Assembly (NCBI RefSeq): GCF_040253635.1
Contig: NZ_JBEJGX010000003.1
Coordinates: 5,667,501 to 5,731,500 of the forward strand
Direction: 5' to 3'
Length of the DNA: 64,000 nt
From: Streptomyces sp. Edi2
GTDB lineage: Bacteria; Actinomycetota; Actinomycetes; Streptomycetales; Streptomycetaceae
Of this stretch, positions 868 to 59,918 are shown in pieces. Numbering within the stretch: the stretch's first letter is position 1; every line of letters begins with the position of its first letter. The translations under genes and the position numbers were made by a program. A model generated the notes under the pieces. It saw nothing but the letters and a program-made list of their open reading frames with translations. It was not told the DNA's origin and did no database searches.

Positions 868-881
<14 letters not shown>
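851..881. terminator. Bidirectional hairpin between glyA and P450
   Basis: Perfect 11-bp inverted repeat (GGCTCACCGGC at 851-861, GCCGGTGAGCC at 871-881) with a 9-nt loop containing the P450 stop codon. It lies between the convergent 3' ends of glyA and the P450 gene and can serve both strands. Confidence 0.65.
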
Positions 882-3451
<2,570 letters not shown>

Positions 3452-41461: not shown

Positions 41462-42796
41462 GTGCCATCACGTACCCACTCTTCGCCGCGGGTCGCCGTA
41501 CTCGCCGACTCGGATACCCGATGGAAATGGGGCGCTTTGACAGCGTACCGAATCCAATCGGACATCCGGCTCGACGGCTACCTTCTCCGCGGCCGCGCCA
41601 CTCCCACGGTCCGACAGCTCGACGAGGTCGGTGCCCGTGCGGACGCGCTGCGCGAAATCAGGGGCGTCGACTTCGTCCGGTCCGTCGACCGTACGCGCTA
41701 CGACGTCGTCGTGCTGGCCTGTGTCGGCGGTGCGGTGCAGGCGATGCTGCACGGCCTCGGCCGCGCCTGGCGGGGAGCCGAGACCCGCCCCGTCGTCGTC
41801 ACCGGCTATGTCGGTGTGGTCTACGAGAAGCTTGCCGACGGGCTGCTGCTGCGGCACGGCGCGGATGTCGTCCTCGCCAACTCCCGGCACGACGCGGACC
41901 GGTTCCGCGAGGTCTACCGCGGGGTCGGCGCCGACGACGGCAGCGTCGTCGAATGCGCCCTGCCCTTCCTCGGCGGCGACCGCTACCGCCGCGACGGCGT
42001 AACCGGCGGGCAGCGCCCCTATACCGTCGTGTTCGCCGCCCAGCCCTCCGTCCCGGAGAGCCGCGCGGACCGGACCTACCTGCTGCGCCGGGCCGCGGAG
42101 CACGCCCGCAAGCACCCGGACCGCGAGGTGCTGATCAAGCTCCGCAGCAAGCCGGGCGAGCACACCACCCACATCGAGGAACTGCCCTACCAGAAGCTCG
42201 CCGCCAAGGCGCCCGGCAAACTGCCCGCCAACTGCCGCCTGGTGTACGGCAACATGGGCGAGGTCCTGGACCGCACCGACCTGATGGTGACGGTCAGCTC
42301 GACCGCCGCCCTGGAGTCGCTGCACCGCGGCATCCCCACCGCCGTCCTCACCGACCTCGGCATCCGCGAGGTCCTGGGCAACCACCACTTCCTCGGCTCC
42401 GGCTGCCTCGCCTCCTGGGACGAGCTGGACGCCGGACACCGCCCGGAGCCCGACGCGGACTGGCTCGCCCGGCAGGGCGTCGCCGCCCACGGTGACTACG
42501 AGCAGGCCTTCGACGCCGCCCGCGCCCGGGTCACCGCGCTGCGCACCGCCGACCGGCTGCCGCCGATCGCCCCGTACTACACACCCCGCACCGCCCCCGG
42601 CTACCTCCCCGGCATCCTCGCCCGGCACGGCCTGGACGCGCACGGCGAGCCGATCGCCGGCTACGCGGACGCCCCCGAGGAGACCGGCGGACTGCGCCGG
42701 GTCGCCCGCGAGACGGTCCGCGAGGCCGCCCGCGGCGCCTACCGCCACGGCGTCCAGCGCGTCGCCCCCGCCATCCGCCGCTGGGGGCAGCTGTGA
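41462..42796 (+). CDS. DUF6716 putative glycosyltransferase
   Basis: 444 aa from GTG 41462. GT-B-like architecture with conserved stretches RVAVLADSDTRWKWG at the N-terminus, VVVTGYVGVVYEKLADGLLL, VLIKLRSKPGEHTTH and DLMVTVSSTAALESLHRGIP (nucleotide-sugar side). The family is known only as a putative glycosyltransferase that travels with nonulosonate genes. Its stop overlaps a possible upstream start of the cytidylyltransferase gene (GTGA at 42793), so the two are tightly linked. Confidence 0.8.
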   Translation: MPSRTHSSPRVAVLADSDTRWKWGALTAYRIQSDIRLDGYLLRGRATPTVRQLDEVGARADALREIRGVDFVRSVDRTRYDVVVLACVGGAVQAMLHGLGRAWRGAETRPVVVTGYVGVVYEKLADGLLLRHGADVVLANSRHDADRFREVYRGVGADDGSVVECALPFLGGDRYRRDGVTGGQRPYTVVFAAQPSVPESRADRTYLLRRAAEHARKHPDREVLIKLRSKPGEHTTHIEELPYQKLAAKAPGKLPANCRLVYGNMGEVLDRTDLMVTVSSTAALESLHRGIPTAVLTDLGIREVLGNHHFLGSGCLASWDELDAGHRPEPDADWLARQGVAAHGDYEQAFDAARARVTALRTADRLPPIAPYYTPRTAPGYLPGILARHGLDAHGEPIAGYADAPEETGGLRRVARETVREAARGAYRHGVQRVAPAIRRWGQL

Positions 42797-42852
42797 CCCT
42801 CCCGCCGCCCGCCCGCCCCCGGAGCCCGCACGGCCCCCGGAAGGAGCCCGAA

Positions 42853-44076
42853 ATGCCGCCGAACCCGCAGAGCAGCCCGCCGACCGTGGTGGCCGTCATC
42901 CCCGCCCGCGGCGGTTCCAAGGGCGTGCCCGCCAAGAACCTCGCCGCCGTCGGGGGCGTGCCCCTGGTCGCCCGCGCGGTCCGCGAGTGCCGCGCCGCCC
43001 GCCTGGTCACCGATGTCGTGGTCTCCACCGACGACGCCGGGATAGCGGCCGCGGCCCGCGGCGCCGGAGCGGTCGTCGTGCAGCGCCCCGGCGACATCGC
43101 GGGCGACACCGCCACCAGCGAGGCCGCCGTCCTGCACGCCATGGACGCCTACGAGGCCGAGCACGGCGCCCGGGTCGACACGGTGCTGCTGGTCCAGTGC
43201 ACCAGCCCCTTCATCGTCCGCGAGGACATCGACTCGGTGGCCGCCGCGGTCGTCGAGGGCGGCGCCGACAGCGCGCTGACCGTGGCACCGTTCCACGGCT
43301 TCGTCTGGCGCGACGCCGAACCCGCGGTGGACGGCGCGACGGCCACCGACGGCGGCCACGGCGTCAACCACGACAAGTCCTTCCGGCCGCGCCGCCAGGA
43401 CCGCCCCCAGGACCTGCTGGAGACCGGCGCCGCCTACGCCATGGAAGCGGCCGGCTTCCGCGCCGGCGGCCACCGCTTCTTCGGCCGCACCGAGCTCGTG
43501 CGCACCGACCCCGCCCGGGTGCTGGAGATCGACGACCCGCACGACCTGGCCCGCGCCCGCGCGCTGGCCCCGCTGCTGGACGCCCCCCGCCCCGGCGCCC
43601 TGCCGACCAGGGACGACATCGACGCCGTCGTCCTCGACTTCGACGGCACCCAGACCGACGACCGGGTGCTGATCGACGCCGACGGACGGGAGATTGTCGC
43701 GGTCCACCGCGGCGACGGCCTCGGCGTCGCCGCCCTGCGCAGGGCCGAGCTGAAACTGCTGATCCTGTCCACCGAGACCAACCCGGTCGTCGCCGCACGG
43801 GCCCGCAAGCTGCAGGTGCCCGTCCTGCACGGCATCGACCGCAAGGACCTCGCCCTCAAGCAGTGGTGCGAGGAAGCGGGCATCGCGCCCGAGCGCGTGC
43901 TCTACGTCGGCAACGACGTCAACGACCTGCCGTGCTTCGACCTCGTCGGCTGGCCCGTGGCGGTCGCCGGGGCGCACGACGTGGTGCGCGGCGCGGCTCG
44001 CGCGGTCACCGCGACGCCCGGAGGCAGCGGCGCGATCCGCGAGATCGCCGCCTGGCTGCTGGGCCCGTCCCTGTAA
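42853..44076 (+). CDS. Nonulosonate cytidylyltransferase fused to HAD phosphatase
   Basis: 407-aa fusion. Residues about 10-240 form a NeuA/KdsB-type CMP-acylneuraminate/Kdn cytidylyltransferase (IPARGGSKGVPAKNL, LVQCTSPF). Residues about 255-400 form a KdsC-like HAD phosphatase with all motifs (LDFDGTQTDD at 261-270, LSTETN, GNDVNDLPCFD). This lets one protein dephosphorylate a nonulosonate 9-phosphate and activate the free sugar with CMP. ATG 42853 has an AAGGAG RBS at 7 nt and is chosen over GTG 42793, which would overlap the previous stop. NeuB-type synthase follows. Confidence 0.88.
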   Translation: MPPNPQSSPPTVVAVIPARGGSKGVPAKNLAAVGGVPLVARAVRECRAARLVTDVVVSTDDAGIAAAARGAGAVVVQRPGDIAGDTATSEAAVLHAMDAYEAEHGARVDTVLLVQCTSPFIVREDIDSVAAAVVEGGADSALTVAPFHGFVWRDAEPAVDGATATDGGHGVNHDKSFRPRRQDRPQDLLETGAAYAMEAAGFRAGGHRFFGRTELVRTDPARVLEIDDPHDLARARALAPLLDAPRPGALPTRDDIDAVVLDFDGTQTDDRVLIDADGREIVAVHRGDGLGVAALRRAELKLLILSTETNPVVAARARKLQVPVLHGIDRKDLALKQWCEEAGIAPERVLYVGNDVNDLPCFDLVGWPVAVAGAHDVVRGAARAVTATPGGSGAIREIAAWLLGPSL

Positions 44077-44165
44077 CCCACCCGAAGACCCCCTGCACAC
44101 CCCTGATCAACCGCTCACCCTGTTCCACCCGCACACCCCCTGATCAACACGAAGGAATCCTCCCC

Positions 44166-45095
44166 ATGAGCAACAACTCCCGCCTCCGCACCCTCGGCTC
44201 CCGCGAGGCCGGCCCCGGCCGCCCCGTCTACGTCACCGGCGAGATCGGCATCAACCACAACGGCGACCTGGAGAACGCCTTCGCGCTGATCGACGCCGCC
44301 GCCGACGCCGGCTGCGACGCCGTCAAGTTCCAGAAGCGGACCCCGGAGATCTGCACCCCGCGCGACCAGTGGGACATCGAGCGCGACACCCCCTGGGGCC
44401 GGATGACCTACATCGACTACCGCCACCGCGTGGAGTTCGACGAGGACGGCTACCGCGCCATCGACGAGTACTGCAAGAAGCGCGGCATCGCCTGGTTCGC
44501 CTCCCCGTGGGACGTCGAGTCCGTCGCCTTCCTGGAGAAGTTCGACGTGCCCTGCTACAAGGTCGCCTCCGCCTCGCTCACCGACGACGACCTGCTGCGC
44601 GCCATGCGCGCCACCGGCCGCACCGTCATCCTCTCGACGGGCATGTCCACCCCCAAGCAGATCCGGCACGCCGTCGAGGTCCTGGGCAGCGAGAACATCC
44701 TGCTCTGCCACGCCACCAGCACCTACCCGGCCAAGGCCGAAGAGCTCAACCTGCGCATGATCAACACCCTGCAGGACGAGTACCCCAACGTCCCGATCGG
44801 CTACAGCGGCCACGAGACCGGTCTGCAGACCACCCTCGCCGCGGTCGCCCTCGGCGCCACCTTCGTCGAGCGCCACATCACCCTCGACCGCGCGATGTGG
44901 GGCTCCGACCAGGCCGCCTCCGTCGAGCCCGGCGGCCTGACCCGCCTGGTCCGTGACATCCGCACCATCGAGGAGTCCCTGGGCGACGGCGTCAAGAAGG
45001 TCTACGAGAGCGAGCTCGGCCCGATGAAGAAGCTGCGCCGCGTCACCGGCGTGGTGGCCGAGGCCGAGGCCGGCGCCGAGCCGGCGGCGGTCTGA
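44166..45095 (+). CDS. NeuB-type nonulosonate synthase lacking the SAF domain
   Basis: 309-aa PEP-dependent synthase of the sialic acid/Kdn family: VTGEIGINHNGDL (metal/substrate His), AVKFQKRTPE, CYKVASASL, ILSTGMSTPKQI, LCHATSTYP, GYSGHETG and ERHITLDRAMWG are all in place. Usual NeuB enzymes are about 345 aa with a C-terminal antifreeze-like SAF domain; this one ends soon after the barrel, with an Ala/Glu tail. With the HAD-fused cytidylyltransferase next door, a Kdn-9-phosphate-type product is the likely role (inference). ATG 44166, GAAGGA RBS. Confidence 0.88.
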   Translation: MSNNSRLRTLGSREAGPGRPVYVTGEIGINHNGDLENAFALIDAAADAGCDAVKFQKRTPEICTPRDQWDIERDTPWGRMTYIDYRHRVEFDEDGYRAIDEYCKKRGIAWFASPWDVESVAFLEKFDVPCYKVASASLTDDDLLRAMRATGRTVILSTGMSTPKQIRHAVEVLGSENILLCHATSTYPAKAEELNLRMINTLQDEYPNVPIGYSGHETGLQTTLAAVALGATFVERHITLDRAMWGSDQAASVEPGGLTRLVRDIRTIEESLGDGVKKVYESELGPMKKLRRVTGVVAEAEAGAEPAAV

Positions 45096-53891: not shown

Positions 53892-54335
53892 TCACCGGGC
53901 AAGACGCAGGTCGATCCAGGGAATGCTGTCCCCCGGCAGCAGATAGCGCTCGATCTCGACAAACCCGTGCTTGCGCGCGAACCGCAGCCCGTCCTCGTTG
54001 GAGGACAGCACCACGGTCTCGATCACTTCGGCGCCCAACTCCCGCGCCCTGCTGAGCCCGTGCGCATACAGCTCCTCCCCGAACCCCTGACCACGATGAG
54101 CTTCCAGCACACGGGCGATCACGGTCACCGTCAGCGCGTCATCGGCAGGCGGACGCACCGTGCTGCACCCGATGAGCTCGTCACCGGCATACGCGACCTC
54201 CAAGTGGTGACGCTGCGCCCGTTCCCGTACCTCCTCCAGCGAGAGGAGGTGGGTAGGGATGATCACGTTGTGGACGTACTGCCAGTCCTTGAGGGCAGCA
54301 TCGCCCTCCGGCTGCTGAATACGAAGATCAGACAT
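53892..54335 (-). CDS. GNAT-family N-acetyltransferase
   Basis: 147 aa from ATG 54335, or 157 aa from GTG 54365, which has the better RBS (GGAG). Acetyl-CoA-binding motif A is present as VTVIARVLEAHRGQGFGEEL, followed by LSRARELGAEVIETVVLSSN and RFARKHGFVEIERYLL. Substrate unknown. It lies 36-66 bp after the P450 stop in the same direction and could belong to the peptide locus upstream, though GNATs are common and this may be coincidence. Confidence 0.85.
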   Translation of the reverse strand: MSDLRIQQPEGDAALKDWQYVHNVIIPTHLLSLEEVRERAQRHHLEVAYAGDELIGCSTVRPPADDALTVTVIARVLEAHRGQGFGEELYAHGLSRARELGAEVIETVVLSSNEDGLRFARKHGFVEIERYLLPGDSIPWIDLRLAR

Positions 54336-54401
54336 CGCAGCAGAACAGCCGAGTCCCTCCCGCACGTCAACTCCGTTCAGGTGGGACGAATGGTCAGGCC
54401 G

Positions 54402-55454
54402 TCACGGCATCGGTCGAGTCATCTGCACTTCGGACACTTCGAGCAATCCGTCGAGTTCGACCTTCCCCCTGGTCTGGCCCGGACTCACCACCAGTCCGTC
54501 CCGGCGCACGATGTCCAGGAGCCGTTCGGCCAGGGGCAGGACCATATGCCGGCCCCAGCATCGTTCGCTTACGTGGCCGAAGGGGAGATATCCGGGGTGG
54601 TTGTCTCCGTCCAGCTCTTCCCAGCGGTCGGGATGAAACGCGTCGGGTTCGTCCCAGAGATTGGGGTCGCGGTGGCTCAGCAGGGGAAGCAACAGGACAT
54701 CGTCTTTCGGGCCGATCCGTGCGTCCACGTCCGAGAACTCCGGAGAAGCCATTCGCAAGATGTTCCATGAGGGGGGAAGCAGTCGGAGTGCCTCAAGGAG
54801 GATGTTCCGATTCGATACGTCATCGCTGAACGGAGCCCCGAGCCACAGGGCGTTGGTGACCAGCGCGGATACGGTGAAGCACACTGGTGCTGCCACCCGC
54901 CGATACAGGTACATGGCATAGCGCCGGTCACCGTAGGTCTTGGAATCGAGCACGAGAGCGGCAAGTTTCGACAGCGGCACGTCCTGCCCGGGCCTGCCCA
55001 GCAAAGCGGCACCGGAGGCGACGGCCGACCAGGTCAGTTTCGGCGTCAACTCCAGCCTGCGGTCGACCAGAACCCGGAATCGCAGACGTTCGTTCCCGAA
55101 AACGAGATTCCGCAGATAAACATGCGCCACGTGCGGCCACCGGCCGGTCAGGTCGACCGCCTCATCGAGGGGACGTTGCAGCGCGTTCCGCACGTCCGAG
55201 CCCACGGCTTGCATAAAAGTGGACGCATCCGTACGGGTAACGAGCCGCCCCTGGACGGGTTTGAAGGTGGGCCTCTCCTCCGCGTTGGCCGGCCTGCTGC
55301 AGAGTAAGCGGTCCATCAGCTCGGCGCCGGATACCCCGATCGTGTCGGACTCCAGACGAAAAAGCGACGCACCACGATAACGACTTAACAGTTCGTCGAT
55401 TCTCGGCGCGAACTCGATGACCCGACCGCTCTCGCCGACGCGGTGCATAGGCAT
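54402..55454 (-). CDS. Short atypical cytochrome P450, candidate atropopeptide cross-linking enzyme
   Basis: 350 aa from ATG 55454 (CGGAG RBS at 8 nt). K-helix ExxR is EALR (residues 221-224), the PERF-like stretch is DPNLWDEPDAFHPDRW, and the heme loop is FGHVSERCWG (Cys299). The I-helix region (AAPVCFTVSALVTNALW) lacks the usual acid-Thr pair, and the protein is about 50 residues shorter than normal P450s, mainly at the N-terminus. It is 77 bp downstream of a 25-codon gene whose product ends AYAWYGWI, in the same direction. In known atropopeptide loci a single P450 cross-links Trp/Tyr side chains of such a core. No redox partner gene is adjacent. Confidence 0.82.
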   Translation of the reverse strand: MPMHRVGESGRVIEFAPRIDELLSRYRGASLFRLESDTIGVSGAELMDRLLCSRPANAEERPTFKPVQGRLVTRTDASTFMQAVGSDVRNALQRPLDEAVDLTGRWPHVAHVYLRNLVFGNERLRFRVLVDRRLELTPKLTWSAVASGAALLGRPGQDVPLSKLAALVLDSKTYGDRRYAMYLYRRVAAPVCFTVSALVTNALWLGAPFSDDVSNRNILLEALRLLPPSWNILRMASPEFSDVDARIGPKDDVLLLPLLSHRDPNLWDEPDAFHPDRWEELDGDNHPGYLPFGHVSERCWGRHMVLPLAERLLDIVRRDGLVVSPGQTRGKVELDGLLEVSEVQMTRPMP

Positions 55455-55531
55455 GGCTGAACTCCGTGGGTAGGCAGCTCGCGCCGGCCAGAATTCCTGA
55501 CCGACGCGAGCCCGGCAGGGAAGCTGTCTAA

Positions 55532-55609
55532 TTAAATCCAGCCGTACCAGGCGTATGCCTTGAGGCTCTTTTCCGGACGGAACTTCTTGACGATGCGAAC
55601 GAGTTTCAT
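55532..55609 (-). CDS. Candidate atropopeptide-type RiPP precursor peptide
   Basis: 25-codon ORF, ATG at 55607-55609, TAA at 55532-55534, with an ideal GGAGGT RBS 5 nt upstream. The product has a basic leader (begins MKLVRIVKKFRPEKS) and an aromatic C-terminus LKAYAWYGWI. The last six residues AWYGWI (20-25) line up with the AWYIWY core of tryptorubin A: same Ala-Trp-Tyr-x-Trp frame, Gly for Ile at core position 4 and Ile for Tyr at position 6. It is followed by a P450 gene on the same strand. A leader cleaved before Ala20 and P450-made aryl cross-links are inferred. No protease or exporter gene is adjacent. Confidence 0.8.
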   Translation of the reverse strand: MKLVRIVKKFRPEKSLKAYAWYGWI

Positions 55610-55953
55610 GAGCACCTCCATTTGCGTGGCGAACGGGATACTTATGCGACGGCAGAAGATGTAGAGACCGGGCGGAATTCCCGGCATTAATTTCAACTGC
55701 CGTGGAAAGTGAAGACCTATTCGGTGAATGTGTCAAGTGATCCACATCACTAGCTGAATTGCCTCATTCGCGTTTCGAATTCATCCGCATTCGCATCTCG
55801 GCAAATCATCCCTAATTAACTCATTAGCGCCCAATACGGGTATCAAAAGAGAGTGGATGGCGTCGAATGAGGTGGTTTAGTCGCATATGTATGACATGAA
55901 CATGTTCTATAGGGGCGGGTCGAAGGTCTCCGGTCCCTGCTCCGGCGCGGCGG
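55610..55953. promoter_or_regulatory. AT-rich leader/promoter region of the peptide-P450 operon
   Basis: About 340 bp, far more AT-rich than the rest of the window, without a convincing ORF. It contains CCGGG-CGGAATT-CCCGG (about 55664-55680) and the palindrome GTGAT-CCAC-ATCAC (55737-55750), a possible operator of CRP-like form. The base composition suggests recent acquisition with the peptide gene. Confidence 0.5.
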
Positions 55954-58816: not shown

Positions 58817-59335
58817 ATGGCGAAGACTATCGCCAGGATCTTCGAATCGCTGCTGCGGCTGTTACTGCCCGCACGAGGGCGTCACCGGTCCTTCGGCTGT
58901 CTGCCCACCGTGAGGTGTGAGGACGCGCCGACCCTCGTGCTTGCCCGTGTGCCCGGCGGAAGAGAGGGGCTGTCGAGCCCGGACGGGAAGCCGTGTTTCC
59001 TCGTGGGCGACGGGACCAGCTACGTGTCGCGGCTCGCCGACAACGTGGAGGCGGAGCAGCTCGACTCCGCCGCCGACCTCATGGACGAAGCGCGCCGCGT
59101 CTTTGCCGCCCGGACGTGGACGCCCGGAGAACTTCACCTGCTGGCCGTGGAATTGGCCAGCTCGCTCGCCAACGTGCACCGGGTGGCGAAGAGCAGAGGC
59201 GCGCGCCTGCCCGTGCCGGACGACGAGGGCCCCAATGCCGACGGTGACGGCCCCGATGCCGATGAAGCTCCGAGCGACCACGACATCAACGGCGAAGATG
59301 CCGGGCCTCGGCTTCCGGCGGAGTCGTTCGGCTGA
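58817..59335 (+). CDS. Hypothetical protein of the graspetide-type neighbourhood
   Basis: 172 aa from ATG 58817, which has GGGAGG about 9 nt upstream. A basic amphipathic N-terminus (MAKTIARIFESLLRLLLPAR, ending GRHR) suggests membrane contact. The middle is a small mixed domain (FLVGDGTSYVSRLADNVEAE, helical TWTPGELHLLAVELASSLAN), and the tail is acidic, Asp/Gly/Pro-rich. It recurs next to ATP-grasp peptide loci in streptomycetes, but its role is not known. Confidence 0.6.
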   Translation: MAKTIARIFESLLRLLLPARGRHRSFGCLPTVRCEDAPTLVLARVPGGREGLSSPDGKPCFLVGDGTSYVSRLADNVEAEQLDSAADLMDEARRVFAARTWTPGELHLLAVELASSLANVHRVAKSRGARLPVPDDEGPNADGDGPDADEAPSDHDINGEDAGPRLPAESFG

Positions 59336-59450
59336 GCCCGGCACGGTGCGCAGGCAGGCAGTCGGTTGCGCTGGCGCCACCGGAATCCATCCGCCGAGAT
59401 CCACCACCGGAATCCATCCATCGAAAGAAATTCGAGAAAAGGGGAAGCAA

Positions 59451-59525
59451 TGCCCACCACAGTTGAGGAGTGTCGGCCCGCCGGAGCAGACTGCCGCCGT
59501 GTACGCGAGTGTCGTCAACCCTGAC
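59451..59525 (+). other. 24-codon ORF with strong RBS, possible relic of a precursor gene
   Basis: ATG 59451 is preceded by AAGGGGA at a good distance and reads MPTTVEECRPAGADCRR before stopping at 59525. It overlaps the ATP-grasp remnant in another frame. It looks like the 5' end of a lost gene, possibly the graspetide precursor, joined by deletion to the ligase remnant. A 16-bp sequence CCACCGGAATCCATCC is repeated just upstream (about 59378-59393 and 59405-59420). Confidence 0.4.
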
Positions 59526-59918
59526 GACCTCCCTCATGAGGCCATCGCCACCACCGCCCATATGTTCCAGGAGTGGGTACCCAAGGCGTACGAGGTGCGG
59601 TTGACGGTCGTCGACGGCGAGATCTTCGCGGCCGAGATCCATGCCGACTCGGACGCCGGCCACATCGACTGGCGCAGTGACTACGACAGCCATACCTATA
59701 AGGTCTGTGACCCGCCGTCCGAGGTGGCCGCCGGCGTGCGGCGGATGCTGGAACGGCTCGCCCTGCCGTATGGCGCGTTCGACTTCGTGGTGACGCCGGA
59801 GGGGCAATGGCGATTTCTGGAGGTCAACCCGAACGGGCAGTACGGATTCATCGAGCAGCCGACCGGACTGCCGATCACGGCCGCGATCTGTGACTACTTG
59901 GAAGGAGCTGCCCTGTGA
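59499..59918 (+). pseudogene. ATP-grasp ribosomal peptide ligase, C-terminal remnant
   Basis: About 139 codons that match the C-terminal part of TgmB/MvdD-type graspetide ligases: TTAHMFQEWVPKAYEVRLTV, then SDAGHIDWRSDYD, FDFVVTPEGQWRFLEVNPNG and GLPITAAICDYLEG. Intact enzymes are about 320 aa; the N-terminal lobe and half of the ATP-binding core are missing, so it cannot form the omega-ester bonds made by the family. GTG 59499 is in frame but has no RBS. Its stop overlaps the methyltransferase start (GTGA), preserving the usual gene order. Confidence 0.8.

What the first reader, a model, noticed from the sequence alone, without database searches (positions are those of the whole stretch)
54402..55609. 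Candidate atropopeptide-type RiPP locus: 25-aa precursor plus dedicated P450
Seen directly: a 25-codon minus-strand ORF (55532-55609) with an ideal GGAGGT RBS encodes a basic leader and an aromatic C-terminus AYAWYGWI, followed 77 bp later by a P450 gene on the same strand in an AT-rich island. Known: tryptorubin A (core AWYIWY) and relatives are made from tiny precursors by one P450 that joins Trp/Tyr side chains, giving rigid non-canonical atropisomers. Inferred: this locus makes a related cross-linked hexapeptide. The gene is below the usual ORF-calling cutoff, so it would be missed by standard annotation.
Basis: partly seen in the sequence, partly recalled or inferred. Interest (0 to 1): 0.95.

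Follow-up and report, generated by a model that had tools for sequence, protein, structure and literature searches.

The report
Two-gene atropopeptide operon, core AWYGWI
A probable Streptomyces genome carries a 25-residue peptide gene followed by a P450 gene, a pair that likely makes a small cross-linked peptide of the known atropopeptide family, and beside it lie two predicted control elements, a promoter switch and an RNA hairpin, whose sequences or folds recur in many relatives.

Summary
Observation and reading both hold. The 25-aa ORF matches NCBI's tryptorubin precursor family (55.6 bits, cut-off 33). The P450 is an atropopeptide P450, 75% identical to SvaB, the characterised varsorubin enzyme. 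The three published defining features (class P450, KSLK leader, Trp at core position 2) are met: a new member of a known kind. The core AWYGWI recurs in 22 of 110 loci examined (5 of 30 in the genus sample), in four genera, in one P450 clade otherwise holding only AWYGWV and varsorubin's SWYQWL. I found no AWYGWI product in the open papers held; a closed supplement may list the core. The neighbouring GNAT gene is probably not part of the cluster. Cross-links and regulator are inferred.

The parts
55737..55750 (-). Palindrome GTGATGTGGATCAC, putative operator (Crp/GlxR-like GTG-N8-CAC)
   Evidence: Only GTGA-N6-TCAC match in the 64 kb window, though 0.69 are expected by chance, so uniqueness alone proves little; together with the promoter it recurs (up to 4 mismatches) upstream of 26/110 family precursors vs 2/2337 control tiles. 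Regulator inferred.
55708..55736 (-). Putative promoter TTGACA-N17-TTCACT
   Evidence: for position; TTGAC-N17..19-TT[CGA]ACT upstream of 41/110 family precursors vs 0/2337 control tiles. Start site not measured.
55614..55619 (-). Ribosome binding site GGAGGT of the precursor
   Evidence: Read in sequence; similar purine-rich sites in the 18 clade members read
55532..55609 (-). Precursor peptide gene: leader with KSLK, then AY, core AWYGWI, stop
55476..55512 (-). Predicted intercistronic stem-loop, 16 bp stem with 5-base loop
   Evidence: Spacer MFE -36.8 kcal/mol, z -3.14; 98.4% of cells paired in 4 distinct rows (window and close relatives), 33-39% when the partner is slid, but no two-sided change and 391 of 500 shuffles score as high
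54402..55454 (-). Cytochrome P450, 350 aa, predicted peptide cross-linking enzyme
   Evidence: Pfam PF00067; atropopeptide clade; AF2 model pLDDT 86 with P450 fold

Best explanation
This is an atropopeptide gene pair, likely one operon: its P450 is predicted to bind the KSLK leader of the 25-residue precursor and to join Trp, Tyr and Trp side chains of the core AWYGWI, after which host proteases would likely cut the cross-linked penta- or hexapeptide free. Shown by sequence: precursor family, P450 clade, gene order, and the recurrence of a promoter palindrome and of a foldable spacer. Inferred from characterised relatives: the chemistry (loss of 2 or 4 H, with Trp-Trp as the most likely link) and release by proteases encoded elsewhere. 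Inferred here: the palindrome is an operator for a Crp/GlxR-type regulator, and the hairpin holds P450 expression below that of the precursor. Expected [M+H]+: AWYGWI 793.3668 (-2H) or 791.3511 (-4H); WYGWI 722.3297 or 720.3140.
For: NF038372 tryptorubin precursor, 55.6 bits vs cut-off 33. KSLK, then AY, then AWYGWI fits the published definition (PMC11450843, passages). P450 75% identical to that at L003, whose record and coordinates are those of the characterised sva cluster. P450 in a 24-row clade, SH-aLRT 100, with cores AWYGWI x22, AWYGWV, SWYQWL. Precursor next to P450 in 80/80 loci found by P450, and P450 next to precursor in 30/30 genomes found by precursor. Core codons vary only synonymously in 16 of the 18 clade members read, while leader residues vary. 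Hairpin. Promoter.
Against: No product, transcript or enzyme assay; co-transcription not shown. SvaB makes both a complex and a single-bridge product from one core, so the bridge number here is open. The regulator is unknown, and the palindrome plus promoter is missing in 8 of 24 clade members: L007, the Nocardia and all six Amycolatopsis. The published S. coelicolor Crp motif GTG-N6-GNCAC is only mildly enriched (21/110 vs 123/2337 tiles) and the window's copy does not fit it. Four loci with 43-nt spacers lack the hairpin, and 20 further spacers have z above -2. Covariation in the stem is not significant. The loci are related, so counts are not independent.
Confidence: 0.92

Rival explanations
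1. The P450 installs only one Trp-Trp bridge and proteases trim to WYGW or WYGWI: a single-bridge bitryptide-like product rather than a multi-bridged non-canonical atropisomer.
For: Scabrirubin and varsorubin B2a have a single bridge; all 110 cores have W2 and W5.
Against: Varsorubin B1, from the closest characterised P450 (75%), has two further C-N bonds, one of them Trp-Tyr; the Tyr at position 3 is kept in all 110 cores.
Confidence: 0.35
2. The GNAT acetyltransferase 36 bp downstream (53892-54365) is a third gene that N-acetylates the peptide or gives self-protection.
For: Same strand, close spacing; acetyltransferases are reported as frequent in atropopeptide clusters.
Against: Not found (tblastn, E 1e-5) in any of 80 loci with up to 6 kb flanks, including the 92% relative L001; found in L096 (97%) but in none of the other 28 short loci, which reach only about 0.3-0.4 kb past the P450. 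Fourteen loci with homologues 53-73% identical in other genomes (L142-L155, about 1.5 kb flanks) show no hit of this P450. A different acetyltransferase near other loci was not looked for.
Confidence: 0.05
3. The locus is decaying or silent, and no peptide is made.
For: No expression data.
Against: Both frames intact; core, KSLK, RBS and promoter elements conserved in relatives.
Confidence: 0.05

Closest known systems
Varsorubin cluster sva of Streptomyces varsoviensis (svaA/svaB; PMC11450843)
   Same: P450 75% identical, same clade, KSLK leader, same gene order, foldable spacer (z -2.98), palindrome GTGATCTGGGTCAC and promoter
   Different: Core SWYQWL instead of AWYGWI; products purified and solved there, none here
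Tryptorubin A / atropopeptides
   Same: Tiny precursor, KSLK, W2 and W5 in the core, one P450
   Different: Core AWYGWI has Gly for Ile at position 4 and Ile for Tyr at position 6 of AWYIWY; AWYIWY loci fall outside this P450 clade
Scabrirubin cluster sca (core TWFIWYS)
   Different: Core one residue longer at the C-terminus; single-bridge tetrapeptide product

Membership tests
Atropopeptides (definition of PMC11450843) | Family-defining P450 | tested here: met
   75% identical to the P450 of the sva cluster, clade support 100
Atropopeptides (definition of PMC11450843) | KSLK or close variant in the leader | tested here: met
   KSLK at residues 14-17
Atropopeptides (definition of PMC11450843) | Trp at core position 2 | tested here: met
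   A-W-Y-G-W-I
Atropopeptides (definition of PMC11450843) | P450-made biaryl or C-N bridges in the product | not testable with these tools
   Needs expression and NMR
Bitryptides (xWxxWx subfamily) | Trp at core positions 2 and 5 with KSLK leader | tested here: met
   definition as given in PMC11450843
NCBIfam NF038372 tryptorubin family precursor | Score above curated cut-off | tested here: met
   55.6 bits vs 33

The most novel reading that the evidence does not exclude
AWYGWI is one ancient, strictly conserved cross-linked peptide kept by Streptomyces, Kitasatospora, Amycolatopsis and Nocardia; in the Streptomyces and Kitasatospora members its operon is switched by a cAMP-receptor-type activator at a class II site, with an RNA hairpin setting the precursor-to-P450 ratio: a physiological signal peptide under global control rather than an ad hoc antibiotic.
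Probability: 0.25. Interest if true: 0.6.

Novelty: new member of a known kind. Interest (0 to 1): 0.4.

Why it matters
Few atropopeptides have solved structures, and the passages I read give no natural role for them. This locus points to a recurring core (22 of 110 loci) whose product I could not find described, in the clade of varsorubin. The recurring promoter palindrome and spacer hairpin make the family's regulation and expression tuning testable; inserting an RBS before svaB already raised yield 100-fold. The QSLK and KNLK leaders lie outside the six-motif list of the published second-round precursor search (its first round, by aromatic pairs, could still see them).

Tried and rejected
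GNAT as a cluster gene: unlikely. CutA1 beyond the promoter: among L001-L110 shared only with L096, so probably a chromosomal neighbour; no CutA1 lies within about 1.5 kb of the GNAT homologues, so no empty site was found. Plasmid origin: no near match in plasmids; relatives of the P450 on 18 Streptomyces and Embleya plasmids at about 60%.

P450 active site: a MAFFT alignment with 22 other P450s of the genome (those of 30 loci that passed a length and motif filter) put invariant Arg185-Arg186 (109 of 109 loci; L059 dropped as truncated) in the columns of the canonical acid-alcohol pair, which recalled the Arg-Pro of CYP152 peroxygenases (PMC5818669, passages). Profile-profile alignment instead placed that pair at Phe193-Thr194, with a deletion between the I and K helices, and the model has no helix of four or more residues between 206 and 215, which favours the second register. 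So the Arg-Arg idea is not claimed. In both registers the acidic residue is absent and Tyr-Arg-Arg is invariant; its role is open. The best stretches of the 60 solved chains shown (of 211 matched) all start at residue 207 or later, so sequence gives no template for the I helix.

Kitasatides 1019 and 1017 (PMC12299652, one passage) do not fit AWYGWI or WYGWI by their nominal masses. My stem-length count did not separate spacers from controls and was dropped; only z-scores are used. Rfam: no match.

'Not described' rests on searches for AWYGWI (0 papers) and WYGW (22 papers, 20 listed, none on this by title) and on word searches in the main texts of PMC11450843 and PMC12352619. Hairpin, terminator, promoter, stem-loop and Crp were searched in the main text of PMC11450843 alone. 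Of PMC11450843 I read Results parts 1-3 of 4 and passages; of PMC12352619 Results part 1 of 3 and passages. Supplements could not be opened and the founding Angewandte paper is not held, so AWYGWI may well be listed there.

Full report
What is there. On the minus strand a 25-codon ORF (55532-55609) encodes MKLVRIVKKFRPEKSLKAYAWYGWI, with GGAGGT before it. A P450 of 350 aa (54402-55454) follows after 77 bp. The precursor scores 55.6 bits against NCBIfam NF038372, tryptorubin family precursor (cut-off 33, E 4.6e-15). It is the only such hit in its 9.8 Mb genome, and none of 14 control genomes has one. The P450 hits Pfam PF00067.

Membership. PMC11450843 (Results parts 1-3 of 4 and passages read) defines atropopeptides by the class P450, a KSLK leader motif and Trp at core position 2. 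All three are met. Of 421 homologues of the P450 the best 120 were listed. L003, 75% identical, has the record and coordinates of the characterised sva cluster, maker of varsorubins. A tree of 84 family P450s, the window's included, with five other P450s of the same genome as outgroup puts the window in a 24-row clade (SH-aLRT 100) whose cores are AWYGWI (22, the window's included), AWYGWV (1) and SWYQWL (1, sva).

Conservation. A scan with the P450 kept the best 80 of 122 confirmed loci, so it is biased to close relatives; 77 of 80 have a precursor upstream by the published motif list. The other three, L019, L041 and L078, have one too, with KNLK, QSLK and QSLK, so 80 of 80. A search with the precursor family found 30 of 295 genomes of the genus, 29 over the cut-off; all 30 have the P450 beside it. 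The two sets make 110 loci and may overlap (L012 and L105 have the same P450). W2 and W5 are in 110 of 110 cores (four cores there were set by hand). AWYGWI is in 22 of 110: 17 of the 80 and 5 of the 30. Eighteen of the 24 clade members were caught by my precursor pattern (the six Amycolatopsis, whose precursors were not matched by it, were left out); among these 18, core changes other than synonymous ones occur only in L003 and L007, while leader residues vary.

What probably does not belong. The GNAT gene 36 bp downstream and the CutA1 gene beyond the precursor's promoter recur, among the other 109 loci, only in the 97% relative L096 (29 of these loci are short). Fourteen loci with GNAT homologues 53-73% identical in other genomes show no such P450 nearby.

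Hairpin between the genes. The 77-nt spacer folds into a 16-bp stem-loop (-36.8 kcal/mol, z -3.14). Over the 107 loci whose precursor has a published motif, 83 spacers have z at or below -2 (mean -3.15). The same measure gives 7 of 107 upstream of the precursor and 9 of 107 inside the P450. After removing spacers over 85% alike it is 58 of 73, against 16 of 80 co-directional and 12 of 32 convergent spacers called by a simple GC3 gene finder in L001-L080; Fisher p 7e-14 and 8e-5. Only 10 of 107 spacers hold TTTT, so most are not classic terminators. Four loci with 43-nt spacers (L024, L027, L093, L094) have none. Among the window and its closest relatives 98.4% of cells pair, but changes are one-sided only and the shuffle control is not beaten, so the case rests on the fold persisting while the sequence turns over. 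Its likely role, by analogy with RiPP operons in general (recalled, no call), is to keep precursor above enzyme.

Promoter and operator. In an alignment of the window and five relatives GTGA-N6-TCAC abuts TTGAC. In the window the palindrome is at 55737-55750, the only one in 64 kb, where 0.69 are expected, followed by TTGACA-N17-TTCACT. Operator plus promoter with up to 4 mismatches occurs upstream of 26 of 110 precursors and in 2 of 2337 control tiles; the promoter alone in 41 of 110 and 0 of 2337. The tiles come from the same loci, the pattern was derived from some of them, and related loci are not independent. 16 of 24 clade members have it; L007, L016 and six Amycolatopsis do not. GTG-N8-CAC is the GlxR motif and GTG-N6-GNCAC the strong S. 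coelicolor Crp motif quoted in PMC10033298 (passages). The window's copy fits the first but has A for G in the second; the second is found in 21 of 110 upstream regions and 123 of 2337 tiles. Taking TTCACT as -12 to -7, the palindrome is centred near -42, the place of a class II activator site (recalled). Which protein binds is untested.

Masses. AWYGWI minus 2 or 4 H gives 793.3668 and 791.3511, equal to the formulas reported for varsorubins B2 and B1 from WYQWL, because Ala plus Gly is isomeric with Gln.

Verdict. A real, intact new member of a known kind. The locus is ordinary for its family; the core's wide conservation, the two shared control elements and the variant leaders are the parts worth following.

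Noticed in passing
L019, L041, L078 (upstream of the P450 at 6001): Precursors with leader motifs KNLK (L019) and QSLK (L041, L078), outside the six motifs of CoreFinder's second round, beside family P450s.
   Followed up: yes
window P450 residues 184-194 (gene 54402-55454 -): Invariant Tyr-Arg-Arg, Pro190 and Cys192 in the I helix and no acid-alcohol pair; the register is ambiguous between two alignments, so the function is unexplained.
   Followed up: partly
window 868-2385 (-): Another P450 (PF00067, E 3.9e-31), with a canonical AGHETT I-helix stretch, so not of the atropopeptide kind.
   Followed up: no
window 42492-45095 (+): 867-aa protein with a C-terminal NeuB domain (E 1e-81), which suggests a sialic-acid-like sugar pathway.
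   Followed up: no
window 58917-59918 (+): ATP-grasp domain of the R2K clade family 3 (E 9e-7); its role here is unknown.
   Followed up: no
L024, L027, L093, L094: These loci (S. rimosus and relatives) have only 43 nt between precursor and P450 and no hairpin, a natural comparison for testing what the hairpin does.
   Followed up: no
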